Source: Auricularia sp. M13
Taxonomy: Eukaryota > Basidiomycota > Agaricomycetes > Auriculariales > Auriculariaceae
Assembly (NCBI GenBank): GCA_037042915.1
Contig: CM073195.1
Location: forward strand, 1,178,001-1,242,000
Length of the DNA: 64,000 bases
Direction of reading: 5' to 3'
In this document: positions 2,837 through 40,077 of the stretch, one piece after another
Position numbering within the stretch: position 1 is the stretch's first letter
Layout: every line of letters starts with the position of its first letter
The notes under the pieces: generated by a model
Told to the model about the DNA's origin: nothing
The model's input: only the letters and a program-made list of their open reading frames with translations
Databases searched by the model: none
Translations under genes and position numbers: made by a program

Positions 2837-3794
2837 ATGCCGTCCACTCCGAGCACCAGCAGCTCTGTCTCTACCGACAAGCCACTTCTATTTGCCTGTG
2901 TCGGCCGGACCGGCGCGGGCAAGTCCTCCTTCATCCGGTCCATCACTGCTGCAAAACCCGCGGAGAACGAGGTAACCTTCTGCTCGTCGCGAATCGAGGA
3001 AGTGACGGTCGAGCTCGACGGCCGGCTGTTCACGCTCATCGACATGCCCGGCTACGACGATGCGAACGCCAACGACGCGGGCACGCTCCGGCTGCTCGCT
3101 AACCATCTCGAACTCGCGTGCGTCACCGCCTCCCACCCTGAGAAACTGTCTCACCTGATCCGGAAGGCATAAGGGCAAGCAGAAGCTGGCGGGAATTCTG
3201 CAGTTCCACCGTATCACGGCGTATCATTCGAAACGCATCCCCGCGGTCGACGCGCAGATGATACGCATGTTCCGTTCGCTCTGCGAGAGCAACTCGTGTC
3301 GCAGCGTCGCACTCTGCACAACGATGTGGGACCGCGTCGCGCCCGAGGTCGGCGAGCAGCGCGAACAGGAGCTCGGCGCGCGCTTCTGGCGCCCGATGCT
3401 CGAGCGCGGTGCCAAGTTCTACCGGCACAACAACACACCAGAGAGCGCGGTCAAGATACTCCAGCTGCTCGCATACTCCTCCCAGAGACAGCCAAGTCCG
3501 ACTCCCACCTTGGGCCGCCGCTCGCCGTCCCTTCGCAAGGAGCGACGCATAAGCTTCCAATTGCAGACGCCCGATCCGTCCGAGAAGCTCAGAGAGCTCG
3601 TGGACCACCAGCGAAACGAGATAACGGGCCCTCAGCACGAGCTGAAGGTGCTGTTCGACAGCATTGCGGGTGAGCTTGCGCGCCTGAAGCGTGCGCAGGA
3701 AGAGCAGAGAGGGATGCTTGCCGAGCGGGATGCGCAGATCGCGGATTTGCGACAGCAGTTGGTTCGTCAAACATCCATGGCGTCGGCGCATTGA
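2837..3794 (+). CDS. Small P-loop GTPase-like protein with C-terminal coiled coil
   Basis: Two exons, 2837-3117 and 3167-3794, giving 302 residues. The start is the ATG at 2837 (MPSTPSTSSS); the frame is open further upstream but offers only a GTG. The P-loop GRTGAGKS lies at residues 23-30, a DMPGYDD switch-II motif at about 80, and a TTMWD stretch can serve as the base-recognition motif. The last ~70 residues are charged heptad-like (RAQEEQRGMLAERDAQIADLR) and likely form a coiled coil. The 49-bp intron has a GTGCGT donor and restores A-H-K-G-K, leading into the GILQFHRIT strand typical of this agaricomycete family of AIG1/septin-like NTPases. It is not closely similar to the three long GTPases downstream, but being next to them is notable. 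Its cellular role is unknown. Confidence 0.8.
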
Positions 3795-3984: not shown

Positions 3985-6496
3985 TTACCAACCCTTGGGA
4001 ATCCAGCGAGCCATGGTATTCTTAATCTTGGTGATAGACCATTTGTTGCGCTTCTTCTCCTCGGTATCGCGCAGGACACGGATCTTCTCTTCGAATGACT
4101 CGATTAGCTCGGTGAGCTGGCGGACGCCCACAACGTCTCCGGAAGCCTTCTTAGATGCGAGACGGTACTCGAGTAGACGGATAGCGGAAGCCAGATGCCC
4201 CGCGAAGTTGCCGGACAGAGCTACAGCCTGGAATTCCTCGCAGAGACCGGAAAGGCGCTGCTGCTGAGAGAGAATGTCGGAATCGAGCGTCTCCAACGTC
4301 GTCTCGATGAGCTGCAACTGTGCCTGGTACTGGTGTACATCCTGCTCGGCGCCTTCGTAGGACCGCTTCGCCTCCTCGTCGATCACGCGTTCTTCTTTGG
4401 TTTCGAGGATCCAGTGAGAATGGAAGTGGCGATGGTCGCGCGCAGCGTGGCCGCATGAATCGCACGCCAAAGCGAGGGCGTTTTCGTCAGTCTTGAGAAG
4501 TCTGCTGTCGCCCATCAACGATGCGAACAAGCCAGATGACGGCGACGCCGCGTATCTGGCCTGCTTGAACGTGGTACAGTTACGCCCAATCTCAGCGGGA
4601 TCGAGGAGAAATTTAAGGTTGCATCCTTTATGGCAGTTGGAGTAGCAGTCGGCGACCGTGCACTGCGTGGTGTGGCGATCAGGAGTGTCTTCCTGAACGT
4701 GCATTTGGCGCTGCATAATCTTTTCAAACTGCTCATTGATCTTCATCGTCTTTAAAATCGATGTTAGAACGCGTTAACTCTAGTTCCAACATCCTGCTCA
4801 CCTGCCGAGATCTTTCGAGTTGCGTACGCAGTCGCGTCAGCTCATGCCTGCGAACCTCCGTCTGGTGTAAGCGTGCTATGACATCTGTGATGGCGGCTTC
4901 GATGCCAATGGTCTTGCTGTACAAGTTGCTGATTTCGGAAGTAGGACATGCAGCGCGTCCGTCGAGCCAGGCAAACATAGAGTTAAGCGTGTCGAGAGCG
5001 GTGTCGTAGCTATCGTGTAAAAACTTTTCATATACTCTTTCTTGTTTTGCCGTTACGGTGCCTCGGGCCAGTCGTTCACGGTATTTGACGACGAGAGCTA
5101 GTGGGTTCTGAATTGCCCACAAATCAGCGTCATGGAGGCAAGGCGGTAGAGAAGTCGGCTGGAAATTCCAGGTAAGCGGATTATCGACCATAGTGAACAG
5201 GAAGCCGATGTTTTTGGCGATGGACGCGGGGAACATAGCGCTGAGGGTGTTGAGCGCATAATCGGTTGGCACAGTCAGGCGCTCGTTCGTCCCGTTGGCC
5301 ATGATGATGATGGCATCGAGACGCGGTACGTGGTCGCGGATGGCGTTCGCAATGCTGGCCTTGTGAAGCCTGTCCTGGTCAATGCCGCGCGTGTCACACA
5401 GCCCAGGCGTATCCAGCACGCGCAGGAGGACGCCATCGTAGCGCTTCATTTCGTACACCATTGCGGTCTTCGTCTGGCTCTGCGACGCGTCGAGCTTGCT
5501 GTCGTTCGCCAGGTTGTGCTCGGGCACGAACTCCTTGACTGTCCTGTTGGCGCAGACATTGGCCAGCAGCGACATGAAGGTCGTTTTGCCAGTCCCCGTC
5601 TCCCCCACTAGCAATATCGTAATCTCTCTCTTCTTGAGCGGGGCCAAGGGGCCTTGCAGAGGCGTGTCATAGTGCTCAAAAGCCTGAAACGCGGGTTCCG
5701 GCGGTGGCGCAGCGGGAAGAGGAGCTGCAACGGCAACATCCGCAGCTTTCGACAGTATCTCTCTGCGTGTAAAATATTCAGTCAGTAGCTGCTAACACGC
5801 CAGAAGAGCACGCAGCATACCCAGTCTGTGGAGGCGGCTTGCTCTTAGTTCCTTCTTCCGCTCTGGTCGTGGAATCTGCGATTCCGAGTTTGGCCTTCGA
5901 GGAATCTGGTGGTCCGGCGAGAGCAACCATCGAGGAACGGCGTTGGACATCCGCCCTGGGCTCGTCGTCTCCCATGCTGGCTACAGACGACTGATCCTTG
6001 ACCGCGGGGACTTCGGCGCTGAAGATGGCATGTCATCAGCTCGCTCTTGGAATATCAACTGTACCACGTACGTCTTTGCGACGCGGTGCTGGATGTTTGG
6101 GACCTCCTTAGCAGGCTCGACGTCGACATGCTTGACGACTTCCGAGCCGGTACTGGGATCTACGACAGTGACGTCCTCGCCACGACTGCTAGGCGCATGT
6201 GGAATAGGGCTGCTTCTGCGCGGCGGTCAATGGGATCACAAGTGTGTCGGAAGCTCTACTCACGGAACCTCCACCGATTCCAGGTCATCAAAGCTAGATG
6301 ATGATGAACCGTCGCTGTCCATGAAGTCGCCCTCGTCATTTGCCAAAGGAGAAACAGCTCGCTCGAGTCCCGGCTTATTTCCGCCCGCAGATGCGCTGCT
6401 GCTGCTGAGATCAAGGCCGTTGTCTGGTGCATTTCGTCAGTTTGAACGTCCTCGGCTGTCTGGATTTATCCGACCTGAATTACCGCCTTTCATCAT
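3985..6496 (-). CDS. Large AIG1-like GTPase with Cys/His-rich module, paralogue 1
   Basis: Six exons: 6496-6475, 6423-6264, 6215-6072, 6018-5821, 5762-4802 and 4749-3985, giving 749 residues in phase. Residues 1-210 are acidic, Ser/Pro-rich and probably disordered. The G domain has P-loop GETGTGKT (228-235), switch II DTPGLCDTRG, the signature NGTNERLTVPTDYALNTLS and a TMVD base-recognition motif. After the last intron comes a Cys module (CTVADCYSNCHKGC, C-x4-C-x3-C-x3-C), then CDSC followed by HRHFH, then a long coiled coil. A ~20-residue insert separates the two Cys clusters, unlike the paralogues at 7570-9803 and 16943-19014. The family is widespread in fungi and has no settled function. 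Zinc binding and assembly on membranes, as in GIMAP GTPases, are inference. The first 22-nt exon is the least certain part; an alternative start is the Met at about 6340. Confidence 0.85.
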
Positions 6497-7569
6497 CGAG
6501 CTTTGCTCGTTGGTGTTCACGGTAAGTGAAGTCTGCCGGAGGCGTCGAAGGAAGGACATGACTGGTGCGATGTGTGGGCTCGAGGCGCTGACCTTCGCTT
6601 AAACCTAACTCTCTTTCAATGCGGCCGCTAATGACTGCCTTGAGGCATCGGTCTGTCCTACAGGTGCCTTGCAGGCCTTCGCGGCGACCCTTGAATGCCA
6701 CTTTGCAAACCGCTCAGTTCCCTCGTTTCTATGCAATCGCCCGAGTCATCGGTGGCGCAGCCTGGGGACAGACTATCTCGTCACTCGCAGCAGGCGTATC
6801 CGCTGCGCTGTCCAGTTTGGTACTGTGCGTCCCGTGGGACCCCTTTCGGGTGGGATAGAATCCCACACAGTTAAACCCGAGGCAGGTTGTTCCCCGCTTC
6901 ACTAGATGGGGATGACTGAGTCATCTTGGACTGCAGCCAGAATCGGCGCGTCAGGCAGTTGTAATCACTCTGAATTAAACATGCCCTCGCATGTATGAAA
7001 AGGAGCAACTTCCTGAATGCTGGAAACTGAGCGTCTCTTTTACCCGTTTCTGCCGGACAGGTGAAGTGCTGCTGCGTCGTGCTGGGGGTGCGAACTACAG
7101 CATACCGATCGAAACTTGATTCAGAGATGCAAGTTAGTTCGCGAGATTTGCAAGACTTCGCATCAAAATTTTATCTATCCTTTTCCCGCTAACTCTCACG
7201 AATTCGTGCCTGAGCGTCAAAGGGACTTGAAGGCTACGCAGGCGCATTCGCAAGCCAACTATTCGAGTTGTATATATCCGCCCGCCAGTGCCGGGCTTCA
7301 ATGTCGGCCAGTCTCTCTCACTCGAAAGTCGTAAAAGTGGTTAGTCGCACGCGCGGAAGAGATAGCTATACTATAACAACGTCGTGGTTGGAAGGAAGAG
7401 CAGGAGGCGGTGTGTTGGAAACTCGGAGATTGGAGCGCGGTGACGCGGTCCGGACCCAACTTTTCTCTTTGGATGTTCAGACCAAGTTCAGACCATGATC
7501 TTCAATCGGTATAAAGCATGCAAGTCAAGAAGAGGCAATATAAGTACATTTAGGGTAATGCCGGCGCGG
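6497..7569. other. Intergenic region between GTPase paralogues
   Basis: About 1.07 kb upstream of paralogue 1 and downstream of paralogue 2, both on the minus strand. Open frames here are short and lack recognisable domains. No remnant of a further GTPase copy was seen. Confidence 0.5.
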
Positions 7570-9803
7570 TCAAATCAAAATCTCTGGCAACTGCGGCGCA
7601 CGACCCTGGGCGATGTCGGCGAGCGTCCACTGCTCCTTCTTCTTCTCCAGGTCCTGCAAAACGCGCACCTTCATCTGGAATTTTTCTATCATTCGCGTGA
7701 GCGCAGTCACGCTGTCGGCGTCGCCCGCGGCAGTCTTCGACTCGCGGCGGAACTCGAGCAGGCTGATGGTCTTCAAGAAGTTGCCCACAAAGTTGCCTGT
7801 GAGCGCGATTTGCTGGAACTGCTCGCACAGCTCGTCGAGCAGCTTCTGCGACGCGTCAATCTCCTCGTCGAGCTCGTGCAGGCTGCGCTCCATGATCTCC
7901 ATCTGCGCGACGTAGTTGCCGGCGTCCTTCTTGGCCAGGCGGTACGACCTCTTGCGGCGCTCGTCGACCACGCGCTCCTCGCGCGTTTCCTCGACCCATA
8001 TCGCGTGGAAATGCCGGTGGTCCTGGGCGAGGTGTTTGCACTTGTCGCAGACGAGCTGCAGCGACTCCTTCCTGTGGTCGCCGTCGCGGTCGCCGTTGAA
8101 CGCCGTGCAGCCCTGTCCGATCTTCTCGGGCTCTTGGTGGTAGGGGAGGTTGCACGGCGCGTGGCAATTGCTGTAGCAATCCTCGACGACACACAGGGTG
8201 TTGTGCCGGCCAGGCGTATCCTTCTGGACGAAGAGGTTACGCCTCATGATCGTCTCGAACCGCTCATTGATCCGCATCGTCTGTGCTGCAGTCAGCCCTG
8301 GGCATCATCACCAAATCCTGGGTCCGGCTAACCTGTTTGCTCGTCTCGAGGTCCACTCGCAACTTGGCGATCTGACCGCGCTGCTCCTCCATTTGTCGCA
8401 GCCGCGCAATCACGTCTGTGATAGTCGACTCGATGCCAATCGTCATCTCGTACAACTGGCTAATCTCTGCCGTCGGGGACGGCTGCGTCCCGTCTATCCA
8501 AGCGAATAGGTCGTCGAGGGTCTCGAATGTATCGTTGTACGCCTCATTGAGCAGCCGCGTCCACCGCTTGCGCTGCGTGTCCGACGGGACCGGGTCACCC
8601 AACATCAGCTCCGTGAACTTCACGTGCAACGCAAGCGGGTTCTGGATGGTAAACAGCTCCGCGCCGTGGAGGATATCGGGCAGCGACGGCCGGTGGAAAT
8701 TGAATGCGAGGGGGTTGTCCACCATCGTGAACAGAAAGCAGATGTTGCGGGCGATCGACGCGGGGAACATCGCGGACAGCGTGTTCAGCGCGTAGTCGGT
8801 GGGCACGGTCAGCCGCTTGTTCGTCCCGTTCGCCATGACGATCACGGCGTCGACCTGGCCGACATGGTCGCGGATGGCGTGCGCGATGCTAGCCTTGTGC
8901 ACCGTGTCCTGCTCGACGCCGCGCGTGTCGCACAGGCCGGGCGTATCGAGCACCCTCACCCGCACGCCATCATAGCGCTCAAATTCGTAGAGCATGGCTT
9001 CGCGCGTCTGGCTCAGCGCCTCCGAGAGGCCCGTGTCGTTCTTCGGATTATGCGCGGGCCTGAAGTCGTGTAGCTCCTTTCCCGCGCAGACGTTCGACAA
9101 CAGCGAGAAGAAGGACGTCTTCCCAACGCCTGGTCACAGCGCAGTTTAGTTCCACGTCTGCCCACTCAAGACGGGATACCCGATGTACTTACCGGTCTCA
9201 CCGACGAGGATGATGGTCATTTCCTTTTTGTTGAGGGGTTTGAGCATCCTCACCGTATGGACTCTGCGATACCATTCAGCTCAAGGTCATTGCGCGCGAC
9301 GAAGGAGATGGCCTCACGGGGACGCGTCCGTGGAACCGGTGGGGCTTGTCACCACCGCCGCTGGTAAAATCGCACCACGGCGCGCTATAGTTGGCCTGCA
9401 AAGCAACTTCCCTTCAGCTCACATCAACGGAGATTCTGTTTCACGCACGAGCCCACATGGATGTTGATGACCGTCACGCCCTGAGGGGCCTCGAAAGCGT
9501 ATGCCTCGGCCGTAGGGGGGTGCGCCGCGTTGCCGATGGACGCGATGTTCACAAATAGAGGCGGTCTGTCGAGGCGTTGAGACATAATGCACAAAGCCGG
9601 ATCGCAAGCAAATCTCACCCGCTGTCGAGCGTGGACGCCGTCGCGCCCGTCGGGTGTCCGTTGACACGACAGTCGACGACGATGGGGCCGCGCCTGCCAG
9701 TGCGTACCGCAGACTCCCCCGAGCCCGACTCCGGCGGCGGCGGCGGTGTATGCGGTATGGGAATGCCAACGGACGCGGGGAGAGCAGGCCCATTGGACGC
9801 CAT
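7570..9803 (-). CDS. Large AIG1-like GTPase with Cys/His-rich module, paralogue 2
   Basis: Six exons: 9803-9619, 9565-9449, 9395-9318, 9263-9193, 9129-8333 and 8280-7570, giving 652 residues in phase. The start codon sits in a strong context (TCACCATGG). The N-terminal ~140 residues are Pro/Ser-rich. P-loop GETGVGKT (148-155) is cut by an intron after GETG, a position absent from the other two copies. Switch II DTPGLCDTRG, NGTNKRLTVPTDYALNT and TMVD follow. The Cys module is CVVEDCYSNCHAPC with CDKCKHLAQDHRHFH, then a coiled coil with DEEIDASQKLLDEL. The intron before the Cys module lies at the same Q|T-M-R-I-N site as in the paralogues. A TATATATA box lies about 110 bp upstream. Role unknown; GTP-driven assembly is inferred from the family. 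Confidence 0.88.
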
Positions 9804-9910
9804 GGTGAACTCGGCTTCGGGCATGGGGTCGGTGCAAAGGCAGGGAAAGCGAAGTTTTGGGAAATTGAGACGCATGCCAATGGGAGCCCTGAGGCGGGAT
9901 GCATGGCGCG

Positions 9911-9918
9911 TATATATA
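9911..9918 (-). promoter_or_regulatory. TATA box of GTPase paralogue 2
   Basis: TATATATA within a short palindrome (GCGCGTATATATACGCGC), about 108 bp upstream of the ATG at 9803. Its spacing suits a core promoter for the minus-strand gene. The site is symmetrical, so strand is assigned from context. Confidence 0.5.
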
Positions 9919-10472
9919 CGCGCAATTGGGTGCGGGCACGTTTTTCGCGGTACAATGGGCCTGGCATCTCGCAGACGCTGTCATCGGCTGTCCGGCGCGC
10001 AGCTTGGTTTGAACAGGGCAAGGATCGTCGCTCACATTGACAGTATCCGAGTCGCCTCATACTCTCTATTCTGACGCTACAGCTGAATCTGAGTAAAAAG
10101 ACATTGTCAGAGCAGAGTGTACAGCCTCCATTTTTGCAGTTTTCCTGCAGTCGCTACGCACCTCTTTACAAAGGCGCAACGCTCAAGCCCGGCCCAAGCC
10201 TCGGAATTCCTGGGTGATACTCTGGCATCCCGAGAGACACCCGCATTGATTTGCGTGCGCCGCCAAGGAGATTGGCGTGGACACCGGCCAATGCAATCGC
10301 GACTCGCCGCGGGCACGATGCGCGGTGCGAGCTCAGTTCAGGGCAGCACTCATCTCTTCATGCGCTGCGGGTCCAGGGCCTGCAAGACGCGATCACTGCC
10401 ATCTATGATTCTATCGAGCCACGGCGAAGAGCAATACATTTGATTCTCCGCCGTGGCGCGTCGTGGACACGG

Positions 10473-10484
10473 CACGTGACGTCA
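10473..10484. promoter_or_regulatory. Overlapping E-box and CRE-type palindromes
   Basis: CACGTG (10473-10478) overlaps TGACGTCA (10477-10484). The first is a perfect bHLH site and the second a perfect bZIP/CRE site. They lie in the 860-bp gap between GTPase paralogue 2, 670 bp upstream of its ATG, and the 3' end of the Vip1-like gene. Use in vivo is unproven. Confidence 0.3.
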
Positions 10485-10664
10485 TCTTCATCTTTGTCCG
10501 CTCTTCAAGCTTCAAGCTTCGAGCTTCATCCATCCGGTCCAAGACTCAGAGCCAAATATTATAAAAGTGTGCAAGAAAATACGAGTCCGTTAAATTTGCT
10601 TCAGTTCTGTCATAAGGGAGACCGTAACTTTACACAGACAAATACAGGTCCGAAAGAAAAGGGA

Positions 10665-11797
10665 TTACACGGACGGGGCAGTGGCAGGCGCGGGCGCAGC
10701 AGCAGTCTCGCTGGTGCCGGTCGTGGCGGCATGGTGCTTCTGCGCGTCGGCTATCCTGCGCGCCTCCTCGTGGATGTCGACGACCTGCTTCGTCGTCGTC
10801 GTGTAGAACGACAGGACCTTCTGGCCGAACGGCGACTTGATCGCCTGCTCATAGTACTATGATGCTGCGTCAGTGGAATGCTAAGGAACGGCGGATAAAA
10901 GGAACGCACGCTGGACAGGGTCTTGGAGACGCCCTTCTGCTCGTCAAAGGTCTTTGCGCGCGTCACTGCGTCGTGGACGACGGGCGTCGCCTTGGTCTGC
11001 ACGTGCTCGGAGAGCGTGTGGCCCTCGCCGGCGACCTTGTTGCCCAGGGTGCTGTCGAGCGACTGCAGGTACGCCAGGAAGCGCTTCGAGATGCCCTTCT
11101 TCTCTGCAGAAGCGTAAGCCATCGTCATCCTTCATGATACACCGGGATCCACGCACTGTCAAGCTCGATGGCGCGCTCGAGGATGCCGTCGGACAGGGTG
11201 TAGCCCTTCGCAAGGTACTCCGCAGCAACTGGATAGAGCACTCAGCAAGCAAAATAGGGCTAAAGAGTGGCGGAAAACTCACTGCCCGCGCGAGGCTTGT
11301 CGGCCTGGTCGATGTCGTGCGAGTCGGGGTGGTCGTCATGCTCCGGGTGCTCAACGTCCGAGTGGACGGAGATGTGAGCGCCGTCGAGCGTGCCGCCGTT
11401 CAGCATGAGCGCGGTGTTTGCCTGAAGCCCGCTCAGAGGTCAGCGGGGTGATGTCATCGGCAATGTCATGCACTGGTGCGCACCGAGGCAGGCTTTTCGA
11501 AGTGGATGTTGGCCGACTTGTCCTTGAGCTCGATCGACTCGATCCTGCACGCATCTCGCTTAGATCGCCCGTTGCGAAAGAATAATCTAATCTATGCGCT
11601 TACTTGCCGCAGAAGCTGGATGGGGGGCAGGGTCAGCCCGAGTCTGAGACACCGCCGCGAAGCGCATATACGCACGAGAAGAAGTCGTGGAGCTGCTGCT
11701 CCGTCGTCGAGGGCGAGAGGTTCGTAACCTGGATATTGGTGAGTATATGCGGCCCTATGTCGCCAGGCCGCCCACGCACAGTAACAGAGTACGGCAT
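10665..11797 (-). CDS. RRM RNA-binding protein, Vip1-like
   Basis: Seven exons: 11797-11676, 11615-11604, 11544-11484, 11421-11283, 11228-11157, 11103-10910 and 10856-10665, giving 263 residues. Exon 2 is only 12 nt. An RNA-recognition motif spans about residues 15-85: ITNIQVTNL-type RNP2 (here LTNIQVTNLSP), the core SFCGKIESIEL, and KSANIHFEKPASANTALMLNGGTL as RNP1 region. A His/Asp/Glu-rich stretch follows, then a helical C-terminal half (GISKRFLAYLQSLDSTLGNKV, YYEQAIKSPFGQKVLSFY). This order matches fission yeast Vip1 and its fungal relatives, cytoplasmic RRM proteins of poorly known function. The micro-exon is required to complete the RRM beta-strand and is phased exactly. Confidence 0.88.
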
Positions 11798-12447
11798 GAT
11801 GGGTGTGAGTGAGTTCTGAGTGGTTGGGAGTGGGAGTGGATAGCGAGTCCCGCGCGAGGAGCGCGCCCTTTAAGAGGAAAGGGGCAATGACGTTATCGGC
11901 ACAGCCACATCTCTCAGATCTGAGCTCATCGCAGTCGCCCGCGCGCCAGCTCGACCCCGGAGCACCACCCGCGGAGCTTCTCACTGCTCGATGGGGCCGC
12001 GCGGTATCTGCTGCACGTCGCGCTCGCCGTCCTGGGCAGTGGGAGGCAATGGCGAGCGCATCAATGGGCCCGCGGTCGAGCCGGCTGGACGCGTCGGGAC
12101 TGGAATGGCGAGTAGACTGATGTTGGGAATGTGATTGTTGGCGTGCGTTCTGCCGACGACGAGCATGCCCTGGATGGTTCTGGCTTTGCTCGATGCAGGA
12201 ACGGCCCGTCTGGAACTCCTGCCACCTCGCGCGCACGTATGATCGTATCAATGACGAGCGATACGGCCTGAAAGGATCGACGCCGACTGCGATAGTGACA
12301 GGCTCGGAGATCGTCGCGGCCCCTGACCGTCGTACTTATTCTTGCATTTGCATTATGAAAGCTCAAACATCAAACAATCGAAACAGCGTACAGTGAGAGC
12401 AACACTATCCCTATCCGTTCCCTCGCCTCGAGCTCTGTTCTCACATC
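11798..12447. other. Intergenic region, nothing recognised
   Basis: 650 bp between the 5' end of the Vip1-like gene and the 3' end of the methyltransferase, both on the minus strand. No domain-bearing open frame was seen. Confidence 0.5.
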
Positions 12448-13458
12448 TCACTCCGGCTTCTCCGCCCTGAACCTCAGCCGACAGTACATAATCGCCCAAT
12501 TCCCATCCGAGTCCTTACAATCGCGCTCGCACATATCCTGCACCTCCAGAATAATCTTCTCCGCCTCTTCGTCGCCCAACGCGCCGAGGATCGAGTGGCG
12601 CGCGAATAGGCGCAGCCAGTCCGCCAGGGGCCCGTGCAGCGGCGTGAGACGGGGGTGCAGGCCGATCGTGGGCACCGTGAAGCCGTGGGATTCGAGAATC
12701 TTGTATGATGTGTGAATTTGAGAAGAAAGGGGGAACGACGGTGTGAAGACTCGGAGGTGGGAAAAGGCACTGCGCTAACCTTGCGGTATTCGCTTACGGA
12801 CGGGAAGTACCACGGGTCGACCGGGACGGGGTCGTGCCCGTGCGCGCGCAGGACGGCGTACAGGCTCTGCACCACGCCTGGAGAGCGAATAAAGATTGTG
12901 AGAGCAGTCCATTGAAGTGCGTGCGCTCAAGTCTCACCGACGCAGTTCATGTACCCGCCCATCTCGCACACGAAGCGGCCGCCCGGGCGCAGCAGTGCGT
13001 ACGCGTTGCGTACGACCGCGGCGGGGTCGCGTTTGCACCAGTGCAGCGTCGCGTTGGAGAAGACGGCGTCGATGGCGCCCCCGCCGCCTTGGTCGTAAAA
13101 AGCCGGTTCCTGGAGGTCGGCGACGAATGCGGCCTTCACGCCGTTCGCGCGTGCCTTCTCGACCTACTCTCGGGATTAGAATGCAGACGTGAGGGCGCGG
13201 AGACAGCGCGGGACCGACCATGTTCGCGCTCGCGTCGTACCCGACGACCGACCCGCCCTCGCCGACGAGCGCGGCGAGCTGCAGCGTCAGCTCGCCCGTG
13301 CCGCACCCAAAGTCCACGATGCTCTCCCCGGGCTGGGCGCGCAGGAGATCGAAGAGGGGGCTGGTGTATGCGGCGGAATAGACAAAGTCGGCGGTCTTGT
13401 TGTACTTCTGCGACGACCAGCCGTCCTTGTTGTCCTTGTTATCGCTAGGAGATGACAT
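12448..13458 (-). CDS. Class I SAM-dependent methyltransferase
   Basis: Four exons: 13458-13219, 13163-12938, 12877-12780 and 12699-12448, giving 271 residues. Motif I is IVDFGCGTGELTLQLA (about 47-62), with the acidic residue of motif II in VVGYDASANMV and motif IV in IDAVFSNATLHWC. LLRPGGRFVCEMGG is the motif V/VI strand. The protein resembles UbiE/trans-aconitate-type small-molecule methyltransferases; the C-terminal half (LHGPLADWLRLFARHSILGAL) matches the lid typical of trans-aconitate methyltransferase relatives. The substrate cannot be read from sequence. Intron 1 has a weak GTCGGT donor but joins M|VEKARANG in phase. Confidence 0.88.
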
Positions 13459-14473
13459 GATCGACTGCGCCGATCTGTTACAGTCGAATGCAGGCTTCGT
13501 TCCAGGCGTTGTGTGAGGGCAAGGTGGGGACAAGCTGTTTATATGCGCAGGGTCGTTTGGGACAGAGATAGGGGCGAACGTCCGAAAGCCCGAAGAATGG
13601 GAGCAAGTGCAACGTTCGGCCGAACAGGAGGGCGTTACCACTTACGCGTGTACGTCACGCGTTCTCCAAGCGCGTGGGAATGACTCCGAATGAAATATCT
13701 GTTCGGATATAGGCGGAGCAAAGTCCGGCCGGTCGTTATGGCTGCGAGTTGAATGGGACACCGGACAGAGCGTGTGAGTGTGAAGAGTGCGGGTGTGAAA
13801 GCGACGGTCTTTTTACCTTTGTGCGCCTCGACGATCTGAGTTCCGGTCCCGGCTCCCAGGCGGGCCAGAATAAATTTCTTCTTAATTCTTTGCCGCTCGT
13901 TCGCGCCCTTCCTTTCCCTTTCCCTTCCCTCCTACCGGCTGTGAGTACGAGTTATCATACCCCTCGTAGTACCGGCGCTGACTGTATAGCGCGCGCCACA
14001 GTGATCCAGCCAGCCTGCCAGCCTACCCACACGCCAGCCCAGGGACCCAAGACCCCGGTGAGCGTCATATAGGGCCGTCAACAACGCGTTTTCTGACCCG
14101 CTACAGCACGCAATTGCGTTCTTGACCGTCCTAAAGCGCGCTACAGCGGTGCGTGTCGCGTCTAGCGTGGCGAGCACGGGCCGTGGCTGACAGTAGCGGC
14201 CTGGCCTCGGTGGCTTAGACTGAGGAGTCCCGACCTGCGCTCCGCTCTTGCCCCGCCTTTTCCTCTGCTGCCCTGGTTCGTAGTATCTGTGGTGTTTACG
14301 GCATTTGTTCTGATCACGGATTGGCAGGACAGCGTCGGCGTCTGTTTATCTACGCGGATTATACTCCCCGTGATCTCGCTGGGCGGCTCCGTACGCTGGA
14401 CCAGACGCCCGCCTTCACCGCCTGCGCCAGCCCAAGGGCAATAAAAAGCCAACAATCCAGCCGCCGTCCGCAG
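13459..14473. other. Intergenic region with divergent promoters
   Basis: About 1 kb between the methyltransferase (minus) and the disordered-protein gene (plus). A pyrimidine-rich run (CCTTTCCCTTTCCCTTCCC, near 13910) and an A-rich AATAAAAAG near 14441 are the only notable composition. No gene is seen. Confidence 0.5.
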
Positions 14474-15805
14474 ATGTGCGCGCTCTTCCCCCGGCTAACG
14501 ACTCTGCTTCTTCTAACCGATCCAACAACAGCCACTGCTCCCGCGTCCCCACAAAAGGCCCACTCCGCTCTCCCTGCAAGGCCTACGCTCCCCACCACAA
14601 GCCCGACGACGACGATGCGCCCTGCGCTGACCCTCATGCTCCCCGCAGGCCCGATCACCCCGCTCTCCAACCCCCCGCCGCGCATCCGCCGCCCGCGCTC
14701 GCCGCACCCCCAGGCCCTGGTCTCCGTCGCCCGCCGCGACCGCCCGCCGTCGCGCGGCGCCTGCGCAACACCGCCCCCGCCGGCGCCCGACGACCAGGAC
14801 GGCATCGGCGAGCCCATGATGTTTGAGATGTCGCCCATTGTGGCGTCTCGCGGCATCGAATCGCTCGCGGCCCATCACCACCATCTCCCGCGCTCCAGCG
14901 CCGCGGTCCCCGTCCCCGTCCCCCTCCCCATGCGCTCGCGCCCCGCCCCGCTGTTCGCCGGGTACGAGCTGCCCCGCCGCGCGCCGCCGGTCGCCGTGTC
15001 GCCGCCGATGGAGGGTGCTGTGCTTGATCCCGTCCCAGCCCTGCGCGCGCACAAGCATCAAAACCGCGTCGCGACCTTCTCGTCCGCTGGCATCGGCATC
15101 GGCGGAGGACTGCCCCCTCTGCAGGCGCCGGCCAACATTGCGCCGCCGCCGCCCCCGCTCAATGTGCGCGCGGTATCCTCGCCGTATCCGGCGGCCAGTG
15201 CCAGCAAACCGCCGTCGTTCCGCTACCCGCTGCCCAACTTCTTCCGCCGGCACACTGGCGGGGCGGCCACCGCGCCCCTGGCGATCCGCGAGGAGGCCCC
15301 GCAGCTGCAGCACGAGAGCGAGGAGCCTGAGCTGCCGGACCTCGTGCACCACTCGGCGCGCTGCGTGCAGTGCTCCGTGTCGGGTGTGCACGACCACCAT
15401 GCGCACGCCAGGGTCGCCACGCAGGCCTCCGCGCGGCGCAGCAGCACGCCCGACGCGTTCAAGCTCGAGATGCTCGCGACGCAGCTGCAGCTCGCGTCCA
15501 GCAGCGAGGACGACACGCCCATCACGCCCGAGCAGGCCGTCGCGGACGACGACGAGGACGACGAGGACTATGCCGAGGCGGACACGACGGTGCGCGCACA
15601 CCAAGCAAGCCGCGGTCGCAACAGGAGCCGTCGTCCGCTGGGCCGGCGCTCGGCACCGTTTGCGCTTGCGATGCCGACGCAGATGAGCGAGCTCGTGCTC
15701 ACCAGCCCCAGCTCCAGCGGCGGGAACGACGCCGATCGCGACTACGACCTGTCCGACACGGAGCGCGAGCGCGTCCCGCGTGGGCTGCGCCGCCGCTCCC
15801 GCTAG
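14474..15805 (+). CDS. Intrinsically disordered Pro/Ser/Arg-rich protein
   Basis: One exon. The frame is open from 14321, but the first ATG is at 14474 (MCALFPRL, 443 residues); a second candidate start is MRPALTL at 14615 (396 residues). The sequence is dominated by proline-rich stretches (APPPPPLN) and His runs (AAHHHH), with an acidic block near the C-terminus (VADDDEDDEDYAEADTT) and Arg-rich ends. A short ordered-looking segment, DLVHHSARCVQCSVSGVHDHHAHARV, holds a C-x2-C followed by several His. No domain is recognised. The long open frame in this composition makes it likely real, and a regulatory or scaffold role is only a guess. Confidence 0.6.
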   Translation: MCALFPRLTTLLLLTDPTTATAPASPQKAHSALPARPTLPTTSPTTTMRPALTLMLPAGPITPLSNPPPRIRRPRSPHPQALVSVARRDRPPSRGACATPPPPAPDDQDGIGEPMMFEMSPIVASRGIESLAAHHHHLPRSSAAVPVPVPLPMRSRPAPLFAGYELPRRAPPVAVSPPMEGAVLDPVPALRAHKHQNRVATFSSAGIGIGGGLPPLQAPANIAPPPPPLNVRAVSSPYPAASASKPPSFRYPLPNFFRRHTGGAATAPLAIREEAPQLQHESEEPELPDLVHHSARCVQCSVSGVHDHHAHARVATQASARRSSTPDAFKLEMLATQLQLASSSEDDTPITPEQAVADDDEDDEDYAEADTTVRAHQASRGRNRSRRPLGRRSAPFALAMPTQMSELVLTSPSSSGGNDADRDYDLSDTERERVPRGLRRRSR

Positions 15806-16891
15806 GCCTGCCTACAAAACGCCTACGCCACGGCCCAAAAAGCGACGACCCGCTCGTCGCACCTTGCATTGCATGTTTCGACTTTTCAAATTAGCACGAC
15901 AACGCCAACGACCACGCCACCGCCACTACTACTATTACTTTAGAGCTTTCTTTTCTTTTCCTCTCTTTCTGGTCTGCTTTTTTCTTCTACTTCTACATCC
16001 CCCCCGCTAGTTTTACCATCCGACGCCCATGTCACGTCCACAGTTCGCCATTCACGCGTGCATACTATGATGCCTTTTCACGAGGTTCCCTTCCCTTCTA
16101 TGTGTCGCCATAACCTTTGCTTTCCCCACCCCCTTGCTATCCCGTCGCTGCTGCTGCTGCTGTTTATCCGCCCCCGTGCCTATAGCTATTAGAGTGCCCG
16201 AACCCCATCCAAACCCCATATCAGCAAAAAACACCCTACGCATCGCATTTATACTTTCCCTTCCTTCTCCCGGTTTTCCCCCATAGAGCGTTGAGTATAT
16301 TCTGCTGCCGCCCCCATCCCCACCACCCCCACCAGTCTGTGTTCTTCGTCCGATCCCTACTAGTCCAGTGTATCCTACCTACCTACCCGTCTCGCCGATC
16401 CCCGACACCGGGGACATGCCTCGAATGGCAGTTGTTGCTGTTTGCATCATTTTTTTTTGGTTGCGATTGCGATTTTCTTGACCATGACTGGGCCTGTGCG
16501 CGCGCGGAATTCGTTCGTTGTCGTGTCGATGTCAGGGGCTACCGCCGGTCAACGTGTGGACATGGCGTGCGCTGCGCTTTCGGTATTGATTGAGGGAACA
16601 CTGAATGACCTAGGTACGGTTAGTGTTGCTTGTCAGGATGAAACTGTGCGGATTTGCGAATGCGCTGGACAACGTCGCCGACCTGCGGACCGGGACAAGT
16701 GCTGAGCATGTCCGGCCATATATGCACTACCCTCGTTGTCTTCCTTTTACATAGAGTGATAGAGTTGCATTCGCCTGGAATACAACGGCACTGCGGTGGC
16801 GTTCACTGCCAGGGCAGACACCACAAGGAATACCTTGTCCTCCTTTATTCCCTTAGTCGCCTCGGACGCCACATTGTGAATGAGCGCTATG
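15806..16891. other. Intergenic region and probable 3' UTR
   Basis: About 1.1 kb downstream of the disordered-protein gene. It is T/C-rich, with a (CTG)n microsatellite near 16149 and TTTTCTTTTCC tracts. An 87-codon frame at 16442 begins with hydrophobic residues but has no family match and poor context. Confidence 0.45.
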
Positions 16892-16900
16892 TATATATAA
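16892..16900 (+). promoter_or_regulatory. TATA box of GTPase paralogue 3
   Basis: TATATATAA, 43-51 bp upstream of the ATG at 16943. The close spacing implies a very short leader. Confidence 0.5.
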
Positions 16901-16942
16901 TGGTGCACTCACGCTGAGCCCCAACTTGACGTGAGTATTGTT

Positions 16943-19014
16943 ATGGCGCGTTACGGTGCTACGAGCCCGAGCCCTACACCAGGTGTCACAGCGCTTCCTC
17001 CAGGGACACATGCCAGTGACACTGCCTTGGACCCCGACGCGAGCCTTGACACCGACTTTGGCAATCTGTCGATTTCGGAGAGAAATGAGACGGCCACGGA
17101 CGGCGACGGGTACGTACTTGAAGCCTTTGTTGTTTGCGCGTTGTTTGGGGAAGCTTGACTCTGCTGCCACAACAGCGCGACCTTTGCTGCGCGCGTGGCG
17201 GATGAATCCAAGGGGTCGCGTCCTTTCAAACCTCTGCCTCGGCGCCGTCATGCTTCTGGAAATACCTCCAGCGGACTGAAGGAGGCAGCTGCAGCGTGCG
17301 TTGGGTCGCTTCAGCTCGGAGTGTGTGCCACTAATAGAGGCTCTTTTCACAGTCCAGCCGCGCCCCGGGCTCCCGCGTACACAGGTCCCCTGCGCCCTCT
17401 CCGGAAGACGGAGCTGACGATCGTGCTCGTGGGCGAGACGGGCGTCGGCAAGTCATGCTTCATGTCGCTGCTCGCGAACGTCTGCGCCGGGCGCAGCATC
17501 CTGCATTTCAAGCCCGAGCATAACCCGGAGAACGACACGAAGCTGCCGGAGTCGCAGAGCCAGACGAAGGCGGCGATGCTGTACGAGATGGAGCGCCCCG
17601 ACGGCGTGCGCATCCGCGTGCTCGACACGCCCGGGCTCTGCGACACGCGCGGCATCGAGCAGGACGCCGCGCACAAGGCTAGCATTGCGCATGCCATCCG
17701 CGAGCACGTCGTGCAGGTCGACGCGGTCATCGTCATGGCGAACGGGACGAACAAACGGCTCACCGTCCCGACCGACTACGCGCTCAACACGCTCTCCGCG
17801 ATGTTCCCCGCGTCCATCGCTAGCAACATCTGTTTCCTGTTCACGAACGTCGACAACCCGCTCACGTTCAATTTCTCCACCTCGACGCTACCGCCGGCAT
17901 TGCACGACGCGGAGCTTTTCATGCTGCAGAACCCGCTTGCGCTGCTCCTGAACTTCAAAGTCTTCAAGAATAAGGCGCGTGGCATGCACGCCTCGCAGGC
18001 TGAAGCGTACGAGAACCTACTTGAGGCTACGTGCGCTGCCACGATCACCATGCTCAACGATTTATTCAAATGGATCGACGAGCGCTCCTCCCAACCCACT
18101 TCCGACATCAGCCGTCTCTATGACATGACCGTCGGCATCGAGGCCACTATCGCGGATGTCATCGCTCGTCTCGACCAGATGGAAGCGAAGAAAAAGGAGA
18201 TCCAGGTGATTCACGCCAACTTGGCGACCAGCGCGCAGGTAATTACTCTGATATTTGTGCTTCAAGCATACGCATGCTCATCTTTCCCGCCTCACAGGTC
18301 ATGAAGATCAATGAGCAGTTCGAGAGAGTGATGTCTCGGAAGATGCACGTCCAATGCAACACGCCTAACTCGCACACGACGCAGTGCACCGTGGCGGGCT
18401 GCTACAGCAACTGCCACAAGGACTGCAATCTCGCGTTCCTTTTGGACCCCGCGGAACTCGGCCGGCACTGCTACGCCTTTACGGAGACCCGCAAACTCTC
18501 GCGGTGCGAAGACCCTCTTGACCAGCTCTGCACGGCGTGTGGTCACGAGGCCCGGGAGCACAGGCACTTCCACTCCGTCTGGGACGTGCAAACCAGGAAG
18601 GAGAAGGTGGTCGACAAGAAGGCCCGCCAGTCCTATTCCTCGGCGGAGCAGGAGGTCATCGCGCACGAGAACCAGATGCACCTCATCGGGACCTCGCTGG
18701 CAGCGCTCGACGTCGATATCGAGCGGCTGGAGCTCCGGCTGGACGAGCTCTGCACTGAGTTTCACGCGGTCGCGCTCACGGGCAGCTTCGTGGGGCATAT
18801 TGCCGCCACCATCCACCTGCTCGAGCTGCGCCGCGAGGCGAAGCGCGCCGCCGGCGACGTCGACGGCGAGCGCGCGTTGACCAAGACCATCGAGAGCTTC
18901 CAGGCGAGGATTCACGTCTTGCAGGAGGTCGAACGGAAGAAGAAGGAGAAGTGGAGCTTCACTCGGCTTGCCTCTGCGGTCGCGGACAGGCTGCCGCGCA
19001 TCCGCTGGAAATGA
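16943..19014 (+). CDS. Large AIG1-like GTPase with Cys/His-rich module, paralogue 3
   Basis: Four exons: 16943-17109, 17176-17295, 17353-18238 and 18298-19014, giving 629 residues in phase. The N-terminal ~110 residues are Thr/Ser/Asp-rich. P-loop GETGVGKS is at 123-130, then DTPGLCDTRG, NGTNKRLTVPTDYALNT and TNVD. The last intron falls at the same Q|V-M-K-I-N site as in both other copies. The Cys module is CTVAGCYSNCHKDC, then CTACGHEAREHRHFH. The C-terminus is a long coiled coil rich in Glu, Arg and Leu, ending basic (RLPRIRWK). It is on the opposite strand from the other two copies and closest to paralogue 2 in the G domain. Function unknown. Confidence 0.9.
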
Positions 19015-19116: not shown

Positions 19117-20207
19117 TTACACGGTCGGGCCCGGCACACCGGGGCTGCCTGCCGAGCGCCATGCAGCAAGAATGAGCTGGACAACGTCGTCGACGCCGGT
19201 GTTTTGCTTGACGCTGGCGAAGATCGTGGGACCGTCTCCTCGCATCTTCTTCGAGTCACGATCCATAACCTCAATGGAAGCCGACACGAGGGCCGCAAGG
19301 TCGATCTGGCATACCAATGATCAGCCAGCTTCAGGTATCAGGCTCAAGTGGCAAACTGAACCTTGTTGATGACGAGAAGGTCAGACTGCGATATTCCCGG
19401 CCCGCCCTTCCGCGGTATCTTATCGCCTCCCTGCAAAATAATTCTGAGCATGAATGCACGGCAAATCAGCAGGGAGAGCGTACCGAGACGTCAATGACAT
19501 ATATGATATAGTCCGCCAGCTCGCGCGAGTAATTCGCAGCTAGATTGTCGCCCCCGGATTCGACGAAGAGCATTTGGCAGTTGTACTGGGCCTGCAGTTC
19601 CTCCAGGGCTCCCAGGTTGGCAGAAATGTCCTCCCGAATGGCAGCATGAGGGCAACCTCCAGTCTCGATGGCGCGGATGCGCTCTGCAGGGAGCGCGTTA
19701 TGTGCGATGAGGAACTCTTGGTCCTCGCGAGTGAAGATGTCGTTCGTGCAAACCGCTGCGAAGGTTGTCAATGCACATATTGAGAGATATAAGTATCTAA
19801 CAGACCGATGTTGTAGTCTTTCCTCAAGCGCTGGCACAGTGCAAGCGTAAGAGCCGTTTTGCCCGAACCAACAGGACTACGATGGTAAGCCTCAGCCACC
19901 TGCGATAAGGATCTGAGATAAGCGAGCGCACCCGCCAATTCCAATCGTGAAGCCGCGTTCCTTGAAGTTACGGCCAGAGTAATCGGGCAAATCGCGCTCT
20001 GAGAACTTGCCTTTGCATTTCATAAGCCCACATAAGTATTCCAGCAAGAATGAACGTGCCAGGATGGTCCAGATGCTCGTGCGTATGGCCGTGCTCGCCG
20101 CCGTGGTCGTGAGAATGAAAACCCACGCCGTCGTGACTGTGCTCATGAGGAGCTGCAGCTGCAGGCGCCGACGGAAGCTGGTTGAAGACTCTGACAACGT
20201 TCGACAT
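19117..20207 (-). CDS. ureG: Urease accessory GTPase UreG
   Basis: Six exons: 20207-20060, 20010-19932, 19876-19806, 19755-19484, 19430-19362 and 19305-19117, giving 275 residues. UreG hydrolyses GTP to deliver nickel to urease. A His-rich metal-binding N-terminus (residues 21-48, [17 protein letters not shown] and more) precedes P-loop GPVGSGKT (76-83). The nickel-binding CPH motif in [13 protein letters not shown] is at 134-136, [10 protein letters not shown] follows, and the base-recognition motif is NKID. The length is usual for fungi, which fuse the His-rich segment to the bacterial-type core. Intron 1 starts GCACGT and ends CAAAG, a GC-AG intron; this choice alone gives the conserved H-P-G-K-F-S-E-R-D. 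The gene ends 102 bp from GTPase paralogue 3 (convergent). Confidence 0.95.
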
Positions 20208-20291
20208 GAATTTGATGGTGGCGGCACTGGAGCAGCTGACGGGACGCGTTGCGAACTCCGACGCTTTCCCTCTAACCACCACATACCTCGT
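20208..20291. promoter_or_regulatory. 84-bp divergent promoter, ureG / USB1
   Basis: Only 84 bp separate the two start codons. Both 5' UTRs and core promoters must fit here or overlap. There is no TATA box. Confidence 0.6.
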
Positions 20292-21247
20292 ATGAAGCGC
20301 GCGCTCGTCGCGTACACTAGCTCAGACGATGAGGACACGGGTATAGAGCAACAGCCACCCACGAAGAAAGCCGCCATAGAGCAGCCTCGCAAAAAGCTGC
20401 CCGCTTTGCCGTCTTCCGTTTATTCGCACGTCGATGACCCTGCCAAGCACCAAGGCCGCGTCCGCACCCACCGCCATGTAGACGGTCTCTTTGCGGCCTA
20501 CATATACACTGCTATACCGCTTGCGGACGTACCGCGACTCGCAGAGGTGCTAGCTCAGGCGACGCGGCTTGCGCAACCCAGTTTCCCGGGCCTGCATTCA
20601 GAATGCGCGAGCGAGGCTGACCTGCGTGCCGACGACCAAGGTGCTGCTGAGCTTCACATCTCGCTCTCTCGTCCGATTTACATCAGCACAAACCAGCGAG
20701 ATACCCTGCGTCGTGCGATACGAGAAGTTGCAGCTAAGCACCCACCGTATGTATTCGCCGGTCTACGTCAAGTATGCGCTTACATCTTTTAGGTTTAGAG
20801 CGTCTTTCGCTGAGTTTGCGATTCTCCAAAACGACGAGAATACACGTGCCTTCCTCGTCGCAGAAATCGGCGCAGGCCACCACAACGTGCGCAATCATCC
20901 AAGATACATTCGATGAACTTCTGATCGTGCCCCAGTTCGTCAGGATAACACGAGCCGTAGACACATTACTCACCTCCCTGGGCCATGAGCCATACTACGC
21001 CGAACCTCGCTTTCACGCTTCTTTCGCATGGTGGGTGCCTCAGATCTCGGCGGTGTCTCCAGGTGCTTCATCGACATCTACGTCTGGTCCTGCTATTCAG
21101 CACTTTCGAGTCCTGAAAGAGCTGCGCACCAAGTGTTCTGATGCTCTGCGCAAAGCCGGCACCGTCGATCTTGACTCCATTTCTCTTCGCATCGGCAAAC
21201 GTGTTGACTCTTGGGCGCTGACTGGGGAAACTGCCGGAGATTCTTGA
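20292..21247 (+). CDS. USB1: U6 snRNA phosphodiesterase Usb1
   Basis: Three exons: 20292-20746, 20793-20886 and 20936-21247, giving 286 residues. Usb1 is a 2H-family nuclease that trims the U6 snRNA 3' end in the nucleus. The two catalytic His-x-Ser/Thr motifs are HIS in ELHISLSRP (122-124) and HAS in PRFHASFAWW (210-212). The N-terminus carries acidic and basic stretches (SSDDEDTG, KKAAIEQPRKK) usual for the nuclear protein. Intron 2 joins EIGAGHHN to FVRITRAVDTLL, matching the family's conserved GAGH turn. Confidence 0.92.
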
Positions 21248-26793: not shown

Positions 26794-28191
26794 TTAGAAG
26801 CTCTGAGCATCCACCTGGGCTTTGTAGTGGTCGCGCTCGGCGGTGACGACGCGAAGCTGCGTCTGCAGCACGTTGATCTCGTTCGTCAGCGCGTTGATGC
26901 GCTGCTCGTTCTCGAGCGCAGTCTGCGCCTTGCGCTGGCGAGAGCGACGAGCCGCGAGCGTATTGAGCCGACGCTTGGCCTCGATCTGGTCCTGGATGTC
27001 CGCGGGAATCTCGTCGTCGTCGAGCATCTCCTCGCGCTGCCGTTTCTTCGCCTTGTGCTGGAAGGCGGCAGGAATTTCCTTGCGCGCGGTCTTGGACTCA
27101 GACAGGTAGGTACGAGACTGAGTGGGCGCGTCGAAGGGGACCATGACGGCGGGCGTAACACCCTTGCGGAAGCCGGTGGGCTGCGGCTTGCGCGTCGACG
27201 AGGAGACGGGAGCAGAAAGTTCGGTCGGCTGCACCGTCGGCGTCTTGGGCATCGTGTAGAGCATGGCCGAGTCGATGGTGGCTGGCATGGTATCGTCTTT
27301 CTTGGTAAGGTTGGCGGGGTTGACAGCGAGGCTAGAGTAAGCGTCGTTGCCGAAGAGCGGAGGGAACTCGAAAGAATCGGCGTCCGCGAGGGCAGGAGAA
27401 ACCCAGGGGTCGAGCTGGGCGGTGCTGAAGGAGTTGAGCTCCGGTGTAAAGAGAGGAGTCTCCTCCGGGGGCGAGTCGTTCAGCCCCGGACCACCGAAGT
27501 CGGGGGTCCAGTCGGGCGTAACGAGCTCCATGAGGCTGCGCAGCTCGTCCGTGTCCGGCATGTCAGCCCAGAACGGGGATGAATCCGGAATGGCGGAGGC
27601 TGCTGCCGCTGCGGCAAGGGGCAGTGTCAACACCGCGCGTGTCCGTGGCGAGCGTCGGAGGCAGTACTCACTGGGCACAGGCGGCACTGGCACGAGCGCC
27701 GGCGCGGCAGGGTCCACGGCCGCAGATGTCGACTGATCGTACTCTGCTGGCTTGTTGTTGATCATGTCGAGATACGAGTTGCGGACGTTGTAGAAACGGT
27801 CTATGACGAAGTCTTGGGGAGTGGCGAATGGGTTGGCTTGGGCTTGGGCTGGGGCTTGGGCGGCCGACGGCGGGGGTGGTAGACGGAAATTCATGCCGGA
27901 GTGTGTGGGCGCCGGGAGGCGTTTGGATAGGTGTGTCAACGAGACATGGCGAGGGCGGTTGGAGGGTCTTGAGAGGGGGCTCGCAAGAGAGTATGCATGC
28001 TGGAATGCAGGCGGGCGCGCGGGGGGACGGGACGGATTTAGAGGCTCAGGCGGGACATTGCGACCGTTGTCGGGGTAGTTAACCTGGGCTGAGTGGGAGG
28101 AAATGGCTGACGCGGTATGCGAGGAGTGGCTCAGGGCGGGCGCAGACGTCCTTAGGGCGGGTCTGCGGGCGCTGCGTGTCACGGCGACCAT
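26794..28191 (-). CDS. Gcn4-like bZIP transcription factor
   Basis: Exons 28191-27672 and 27608-26794, giving 444 residues. The 63-bp intron has a strong GTGAGT donor but is a multiple of three, so retention would give 465 residues without a stop. The basic region KRRLNTLAARRSRQRK is at about 385-400, followed by a zipper with heptad Leu/Ile/Val (ALTNEINVLQTQLRVV). The N-A-A-R-R-S-R spacing matches Gcn4/Cpc1, regulators of amino-acid starvation responses. Acidic/aromatic activation-like segments (FWADMPDTDELRSLMEL, DSFEFPPLFG) lie in the middle. Residues 1-99 have low-complexity, leader-like composition. The next Met (MNFRLPPPP, 27894) could be the true start, leaving a long leader as is usual for translationally controlled GCN4 genes. 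Confidence 0.85.
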   Translation of the reverse strand: MVAVTRSARRPALRTSAPALSHSSHTASAISSHSAQVNYPDNGRNVPPEPLNPSRPPARPPAFQHAYSLASPLSRPSNRPRHVSLTHLSKRLPAPTHSGMNFRLPPPPSAAQAPAQAQANPFATPQDFVIDRFYNVRNSYLDMINNKPAEYDQSTSAAVDPAAPALVPVPPVPSEYCLRRSPRTRAVLTLPLAAAAAASAIPDSSPFWADMPDTDELRSLMELVTPDWTPDFGGPGLNDSPPEETPLFTPELNSFSTAQLDPWVSPALADADSFEFPPLFGNDAYSSLAVNPANLTKKDDTMPATIDSAMLYTMPKTPTVQPTELSAPVSSSTRKPQPTGFRKGVTPAVMVPFDAPTQSRTYLSESKTARKEIPAAFQHKAKKRQREEMLDDDEIPADIQDQIEAKRRLNTLAARRSRQRKAQTALENEQRINALTNEINVLQTQLRVVTAERDHYKAQVDAQSF

Positions 28192-40064: not shown

Positions 40065-40077
40065 CAGCGCGGGACTT

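What the first reader, a model, noticed from the sequence alone, without database searches (positions are those of the whole stretch)
3985..19014. Island of three paralogous AIG1-like GTPases with a conserved Cys/His module
Three genes within 15 kb (3985-6496, 7570-9803, 16943-19014) share one architecture: a variable disordered N-terminus, a G domain with GETGxGK[ST], DTPGLCDTRG and NGTNxRLTVPTDYALNTLS, then C-x4-C-x3-C-x3-C plus C-x2-C...HRHFH, then a long coiled coil. A small, different P-loop GTPase sits beside them. The Cys/His module is perfectly kept in all three, which suggests a folded metal-binding unit with no name I know. Local expansion with divergent N-termini is the pattern of self/non-self or stress-sensing families such as GIMAPs; that role is inference.
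Basis: partly seen in the sequence, partly recalled or inferred. Interest (0 to 1): 0.75.

Follow-up and report, generated by a model that had tools for sequence, protein, structure and literature searches.

The report
Three linked fungal AIG1-like GTPase genes
A fungal genome carries, at a single spot, three old gene copies for a GTP-binding protein related to animal and plant AIG1/GIMAP proteins, each followed by an unnamed, probably zinc-holding segment; the family is of a known kind, and nothing found here shows that it serves self-recognition or immunity.

Summary
Three intact, intron-split genes (window 6559-3985 and 9824-7570 on -, 16943-19014 on +) encode 770, 659 and 629 aa proteins: unrelated low-complexity N-terminus, AIG1-type G domain (PF04548 above cut-off in 3 of 3), Cys/His module, helical C-terminus. 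No Pfam model matches it above cut-off. Protein searches of the held 52 Mb genome found the family only here.

Added here: the invariant Arg of NGTN[K/E]RLT aligns, in g3, with a GIMAP7 arginine that by recall is the trans-acting finger; the G4 lysine is missing in 3 of 3; five N-terminal exons lie between phase-2 introns and could be skipped in frame. The duplicates are old and their G domains are under purifying selection.

Best reading: a septin-superfamily GTPase working as a GTP-dependent dimer, with a metal-stabilised neck joining it to a helical effector part. Immune or self/non-self function is unsupported. No relatives were found in the prokaryotic and viral collections searched; no eukaryote collection could be searched.

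The parts
3985..6559 (-). g1: AIG1-like GTPase gene, 770 aa; exons 6559-6475, 6423-6264, 6215-6072, 6018-5821, 5762-4802, 4749-3985
   Evidence: spliced model without stops; 4 near-identical splice chains possible for the N-terminal part; PF04548 35.2 bits (G domain to C-terminus given)
7570..9824 (-). g2: AIG1-like GTPase gene, 659 aa; exons 9824-9619, 9565-9449, 9395-9318, 9263-9193, 9129-8333, 8280-7570; an extra intron splits the P-loop
   Evidence: a single splice chain found for the N-terminal part; PF04548 29.9 bits on the piece after the P-loop intron
16943..19014 (+). g3: AIG1-like GTPase gene, 629 aa; exons 16943-17109, 17176-17295, 17353-18238, 18298-19014
   Evidence: 2 splice chains (one retains the 57-nt intron in frame); PF04548 43.3 bits (G domain to C-terminus given)
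4802..5762 (-). g1 exon holding the end of the N-terminal linker and the G domain
   Evidence: AIG1 profile hit at G000:C3:1183183-1183620
8333..9263 (-). g2 G domain, two exons (9263-9193 and 9129-8333)
17353..18238 (+). g3 exon holding the end of the N-terminal linker and the G domain
4420..4662 (-). g1 Cys/His module (with an 18-residue insert)
8005..8193 (-). g2 Cys/His module
18385..18573 (+). g3 Cys/His module
2837..3794 (+). neighbouring small P-loop GTPase of a different family (splicing not modelled)
   Evidence: MMR_HSR1 41.3 bits on its first 94 residues, no family for the second piece; relatives elsewhere in the genome

Best explanation
A septin-superfamily ('paraseptin') AIG1-type GTPase family of this fungus, kept as three old paralogues at one locus. 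Proposed working: GTP binding lets two G domains pair face to face; the invariant Arg of NGTN[K/E]RLT reaches into the partner's site and triggers hydrolysis; the Cys/His module, probably holding one or two zinc ions, is the rigid neck that passes the nucleotide state to the C-terminal helical part, which binds the target (membrane or protein). The disordered N-terminus is a variable, possibly alternatively spliced, tether. The three may form hetero- as well as homodimers. Shown: gene structures (as sequence models), domain order, family assignment of the G domain, Cys invariance among the three, sole locus found in the genome, purifying selection on the G domain. Inferred: dimerisation, arginine finger, zinc, target, splicing variants.
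For: PF04548 above cut-off in 3 of 3. Among PDB sequences GIMAP7 (3zjc), Toc34 and septins appear, all with weak E-values (GIMAP7 0.044, 0.011, 0.0079 for g3, g1, g2); in g3 GIMAP7 is the first row and the match spans residues 9-275 of 284. In that alignment R of KRLT falls on R of LGRYT (chain residue 108; by recall R103 of GIMAP7, the trans-acting finger); the Arg is invariant in 3 of 3 paralogues. PMC11238149 (passages) states that AIG1/GIMAP and TOC34 have such an R-finger and that opisthokont septin groups 1-4 lack it; PMC8201404 (passages) states that GIMAP GTPase activity is thought to be controlled by homo- or heterodimerisation. Cys invariance P 2e-4, 2e-4, 0.005. Intron at the G-domain/module junction is phase 0 and in the same place in 3 of 3.
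Against: G4 reads T-[M/N]-V-D in 3 of 3: the Lys that usually stacks on guanine (recall) is missing, so nucleotide preference may be weak or changed. The arginine match rests on one low-scoring pairwise alignment (domain E 0.32). Other proteins score better than GIMAP7 in the PDB for two of three paralogues: midasin for g1 (1.2e-6 against 0.011), and a designed lectin, Toc34 and midasin for g2 (0.0009-0.0076 against 0.0079); the three-row profile returned only midasin at E <= 0.01. Metal binding is inferred from residues only. No structure could be predicted.
Confidence: 0.5

Rival explanations
1. Fungal self/non-self or stress-sensing GTPases: the variable N-termini are recognition parts, and the G domain and helices drive assembly or cell death.
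For: Gene cluster, dissimilar N-termini, AIG1 relatives linked to immunity in animals and plants (PMC7053062, PMC3723955, passages).
Against: Only three members found, all at one locus; old duplicates with G-domain dN/dS 0.18-0.29; no HET row and only a sub-cut-off NACHT row (13.6 against 26.7 bits, g1) among the Pfam rows shown (25 of 32 for g1, 5 of 5 for g2, 10 of 10 for g3, N-termini not included); the N-termini given alone match no such family and look low-complexity by composition.
Confidence: 0.08
2. A septin-like or Toc34-like housekeeping scaffold on an organelle membrane, where the basic Trp-containing C-terminal segment (KWSxTxI/L...) of g1 and g3 touches membrane.
For: Weak Septin matches for g1 and g3 (24.4, 20.6 bits), Toc34 in the PDB searches with g3 and g2; net charge +4 in the last 18 residues of g1 and g3.
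Against: The hydrophobic moment of that tail is unremarkable (rank 78 of 753 and 76 of 612 windows; g2 225 of 642 and net charge -1). Septins proper are encoded elsewhere in the genome.
Confidence: 0.25
3. A degenerate (pseudo)GTPase in which the Cys/His module is the working part, such as a metal- or redox-responsive switch, and the G domain is only a dimerisation platform.
For: G4 Lys absent in 3 of 3; Cys invariant in a segment that otherwise diverges more (42-64% identity) than the G domain (62-66%).
Against: The G domain is the best conserved part, with P-loop, DTPG and the stretch RLTVPTDYALNTLSAMFPASIA kept in 3 of 3.
Confidence: 0.12

Closest known systems
AIG1 family, PF04548 (GIMAP/IAN GTPases; human GIMAP7 structure 3zjc)
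   Same: G domain above the Pfam cut-off in 3 of 3; aligned Arg and general G-domain order in g3; helical C-terminus; clustered genes.
   Different: Cys/His module between G domain and helices, which I know of in no described GIMAP (recall); G4 Lys missing; long low-complexity N-terminus; fungal.
AIG1-Hint proteins of Glomeromycotina (MEROPS C46; PMC8778642, one passage)
   Same: AIG1 domain in fungi, clade-specific expansion.
   Different: They carry a Hint domain; no Hint row appeared here, and no Cys/His module is described in that passage.
Septins (PF00735)
   Same: Same GTPase superclass; weak profile match for g1 and g3.
   Different: Below the Septin cut-off; the genome has separate septins.
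Uncharacterised fungal and animal 'AIG1-type G domain-containing' proteins with a Cys/His segment after the G domain (recalled from protein databases; not seen in any call)
   Same: By recall, DTRG-type G domain followed by a C...CH..C segment.
   Different: Not compared; no such sequence was fetched here.

Membership tests
AIG1 family (PF04548) | score above Pfam's gathering cut-off (27 bits) | tested here: met
   43.3 (g3), 35.2 (g1), 29.9 (g2) bits
AIG1 family (PF04548) | G1 P-loop GxxxxGK[ST] and G3 DxxG | tested here: met
   GETG[VT]GK[ST] and DTPG in 3 of 3
GIMAP proper (vertebrate/plant type) | G4 motif with base-stacking Lys (consensus recalled, not a strict criterion) | tested here: not met
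   T-[M/N]-V-D in 3 of 3; so not filed as GIMAP
GIMAP proper (vertebrate/plant type) | trans-acting arginine finger | tested here: inconclusive
   invariant Arg aligned to a GIMAP7 Arg in one weak alignment, g3; function untested
GIMAP proper (vertebrate/plant type) | C-terminal coiled coil | tested here: inconclusive
   heptad shuffle P 0.04, 0.45, 0.02
GIMAP proper (vertebrate/plant type) | binds GTP/GDP, dimerises | not testable with these tools
   needs purified protein
Septin (PF00735) | score above Pfam's gathering cut-off (26.2 bits) | tested here: not met
   24.4 and 20.6 bits for g1 and g3; no Septin row at E <= 1 for the g2 piece tested, which starts inside the P-loop
Named zinc-binding families of Pfam | match of the module to a Pfam model above cut-off | tested here: not met
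   3 C-terminal exons at E <= 10: one row for g1 (PriCT_1), two for g2 (TFIID_20kDa, Mis12), none for g3, all below cut-off
Fungal NLR/HET incompatibility proteins | NACHT, NB-ARC or HET domain | tested here: not met
   only a sub-cut-off NACHT P-loop row for g1 among the rows shown (25 of 32 for g1); N-termini alone match no such family

The most novel reading that the evidence does not exclude
A fungal GTP-switched sensor family in which a new zinc- or redox-responsive fold links a septin-like G domain to a helical effector, with N-termini diversified by in-frame skippable exons to tether it to different partners, used in an unrecognised fungal cell-autonomous defence or incompatibility pathway.
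Probability: 0.06. Interest if true: 0.75.

Novelty: new variant of a known kind. Interest (0 to 1): 0.4.

Why it matters
One published survey detected no AIG1 domain in the representative fungi it examined (PMC3723955, passages), and a later paper repeats in its background that GIMAPs are lacking as far as known in fungi like yeast (PMC7053062, passages); AIG1-Hint proteins of Glomeromycotina are the known exception that I saw (PMC8778642, one passage). An intact three-gene set in this fungus, with a constrained module that Pfam does not name, gives a small system (three genes at one locus, so a full-family deletion is feasible) in which to ask what AIG1-type GTPases do outside animals and plants, and whether the arginine-finger dimer mechanism lost in most opisthokont septins persists in a fungal relative.

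Tried and rejected
Relatives: peptide-pattern scans of viral contigs with the module (63 stretches matched a pattern, 0 confirmed) and the G domain (0), a DTPGxxDTRG-type DNA pattern in viral contigs (0 matches), GTDB genome contigs with the module (0) and the G domain (0), and the phage collection by tblastn (no match at E <= 0.01). These are prokaryotic and viral collections, so the result says nothing about other fungi. Further copies in the own genome: none beyond the three (the tool calls counts lower bounds). A PF04548 search gave 7 rows, 4 over the cut-off, of which 3 are these genes and one (C3:3443527, 27.1 bits) overlaps a relative of the small-GTPase neighbour. PDB profile search with the module: 2 chance rows, E 0.39 and 0.62. 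Amphipathic C-terminal helix: not remarkable. Sequence shared between the N-termini: none seen (BLASTP; DNA repeats of 40 nt or more lie within the G-domain exons only). Gene conversion was not tested beyond the regional distances. Literature: ten searches; in the rows listed I saw no paper on this Cys/His module or on a basidiomycete AIG1 family; those lists are partial, and two of the searches were too broad to be informative.
Full report
The window lies in a 52.1 Mb, 14-contig genome (G000:C3:1178001-1242000). GC is 57.5%, the 13 modelled introns are 48-66 nt, and ARAGORN and Rfam (gathering threshold) report nothing in the window.

Genes. Joining GT-AG introns gives three open models: g1 770 aa (6559-3985, -), g2 659 aa (9824-7570, -), g3 629 aa (16943-19014, +). 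g1 and g2 are in tandem 1.0 kb apart; g3 is inverted 7.1 kb away with other reading frames between, among them a methyltransferase. Enumerating intron chains from each ATG to the G domain left one chain for g2, two for g3 and four near-identical ones for g1 (a fixed list of donor types, acceptors ending CAG or TAG, introns 45-70 nt). The last intron, between G domain and module, is phase 0 and in the same place in 3 of 3; g2 alone has an intron inside the P-loop. Of the nine introns upstream of the conserved part of the G domain, eight are phase 2, so five internal exons (g1 144 and 198 nt, g2 117 and 78 nt, g3 120 nt) could be skipped in frame. No transcripts were available.

Domains. PF04548 (AIG1) is above its cut-off in 3 of 3 (43.3, 35.2, 29.9 bits; cut-off 27; the proteins were given without most of their N-termini, g2 from the P-loop intron on). 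Septin is below its cut-off. The C-terminal exons match no Pfam family above cut-off at E <= 10 (three sub-cut-off rows in all), and the g3 G domain plus C-terminus matches no NCBIfam model above its cut-off (five rows below it). The N-termini match nothing above cut-off and show no similarity to each other (BLASTP E 1.4, 1.9, 9.1). Among PDB sequences GIMAP7 (3zjc) is the first row for g3 (E 0.044, residues 9-275 of the 284-residue query) and the first GTPase row for g1 (0.011, after five midasin rows at 1.2e-6 to 1e-4); for g2 it is the seventh row (0.0079) after a designed lectin, Toc34 (0.0044) and four midasin rows. The three-row G-domain profile found only midasin at E <= 0.01 (five rows). 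The family call therefore rests on Pfam, not on the PDB.

Module. Aligned, the module reads C-x4-C-x3-C-H-x2-C-N ... G-x2-C-x2-F ... C-x2-C-x-H-x4-HRHFH. Seven Cys are invariant; g1 has an 18-residue insert between the fifth and the sixth. An eighth invariant Cys lies in the helical tail. Cys conservation exceeds the background of the C-terminal half (P 2e-4, 2e-4, 0.005 for g1, g2, g3); His conservation alone does not. The ligands would suffice for two zinc sites; metal binding is inference.

G-domain details. The invariant Arg in NGTN[K/E]RLT (g1 R357, g2 R263, g3 R231) aligns in g3 with R of LGRYT in the GIMAP7 chain. That this residue is GIMAP7's trans-acting finger is recalled (Schwefel 2013, not held). 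The septin-evolution paper PMC11238149 (passages) says R-fingers occur in AIG1/GIMAP and TOC34 and that opisthokont septin groups 1-4 lack them. Against full canonical function, G4 is T-[M/N]-V-D in 3 of 3.

Family size and age. Protein searches of the genome with the g1 C-terminus, the g3 G domain (E <= 1) and the g3 module (E <= 10; four rows, g1 split in two) return only these three loci; the tool warns that counts of large families are lower bounds. A PF04548 search adds one further row just over the cut-off (27.1 bits), at a relative of the small neighbour GTPase. Nei-Gojobori distances: G domain dS 0.93-1.68 and dN/dS 0.18-0.29 (3 of 3 pairs); tail dS 0.82-1.96 and dN/dS 0.27-0.63 (3 of 3); linker measurable in 1 of 3 pairs (0.67) and module in 1 of 3 (0.43), the others saturated; N-terminus measurable in 2 of 3 (0.62, 0.35) on an unreliable alignment. 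GC3 differs (g1 0.70, g2 0.86, g3 0.87 in the G domain), which biases dS. These numbers fit old duplicates under purifying selection; they neither show nor exclude diversifying selection at the N-termini.

Relatives elsewhere. None was found in viral contigs, GTDB genomes or phages. [quoted passage not shown] By recall, protein databases hold many uncharacterised fungal and animal proteins of similar layout, so I treat this as a variant of a known kind, not as a new kind.

Mechanism. Most likely: GTP-dependent face-to-face dimer with arginine finger, metal-stabilised neck, helical target-binding part, variable disordered tether. The mechanism as a whole is held at 0.5; the family assignment of the G domain and the reality of the conserved module are firmer. 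The self/non-self reading has no support here beyond clustering and dissimilar N-termini.

Noticed in passing
40263-45561 (-): LINE-type retrotransposon-like frames in a GC-poor stretch: endonuclease/exonuclease-like and reverse transcriptase frames, plus one frame without a match, with a 44-base T tract at 40076-40119.
   Followed up: partly
2837-3794 (+) and G000:C3:3406750-3443751: The small P-loop GTPase neighbour has 4 further matches at C3:3.41-3.44 Mb; two of them read with in-frame stops in the six-frame search, which may be introns or decay.
   Followed up: partly
6559-5821, 9824-9318, 16943-17295: Eight of nine N-terminal introns are phase 2, so five internal exons are skippable in frame; a 57-nt intron of g3 (17296-17352) can also be retained in frame.
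   Followed up: partly
9130-9192 (-): Intron inside the P-loop codons of g2 only, absent from g1 and g3.
   Followed up: no
19466-20789: A cobW/HypB/UreG-type frame (-) and an HVSL frame (+; by recall Usb1-like) lie beside g3.
   Followed up: no
26-58 kb: Ordinary neighbours: bZIP factor (26797-28224), GDA1/CD39 phosphatase (34595-36067), Nop snoRNA-binding domain (48093-49031), short-chain dehydrogenase (57106-57732).
   Followed up: no
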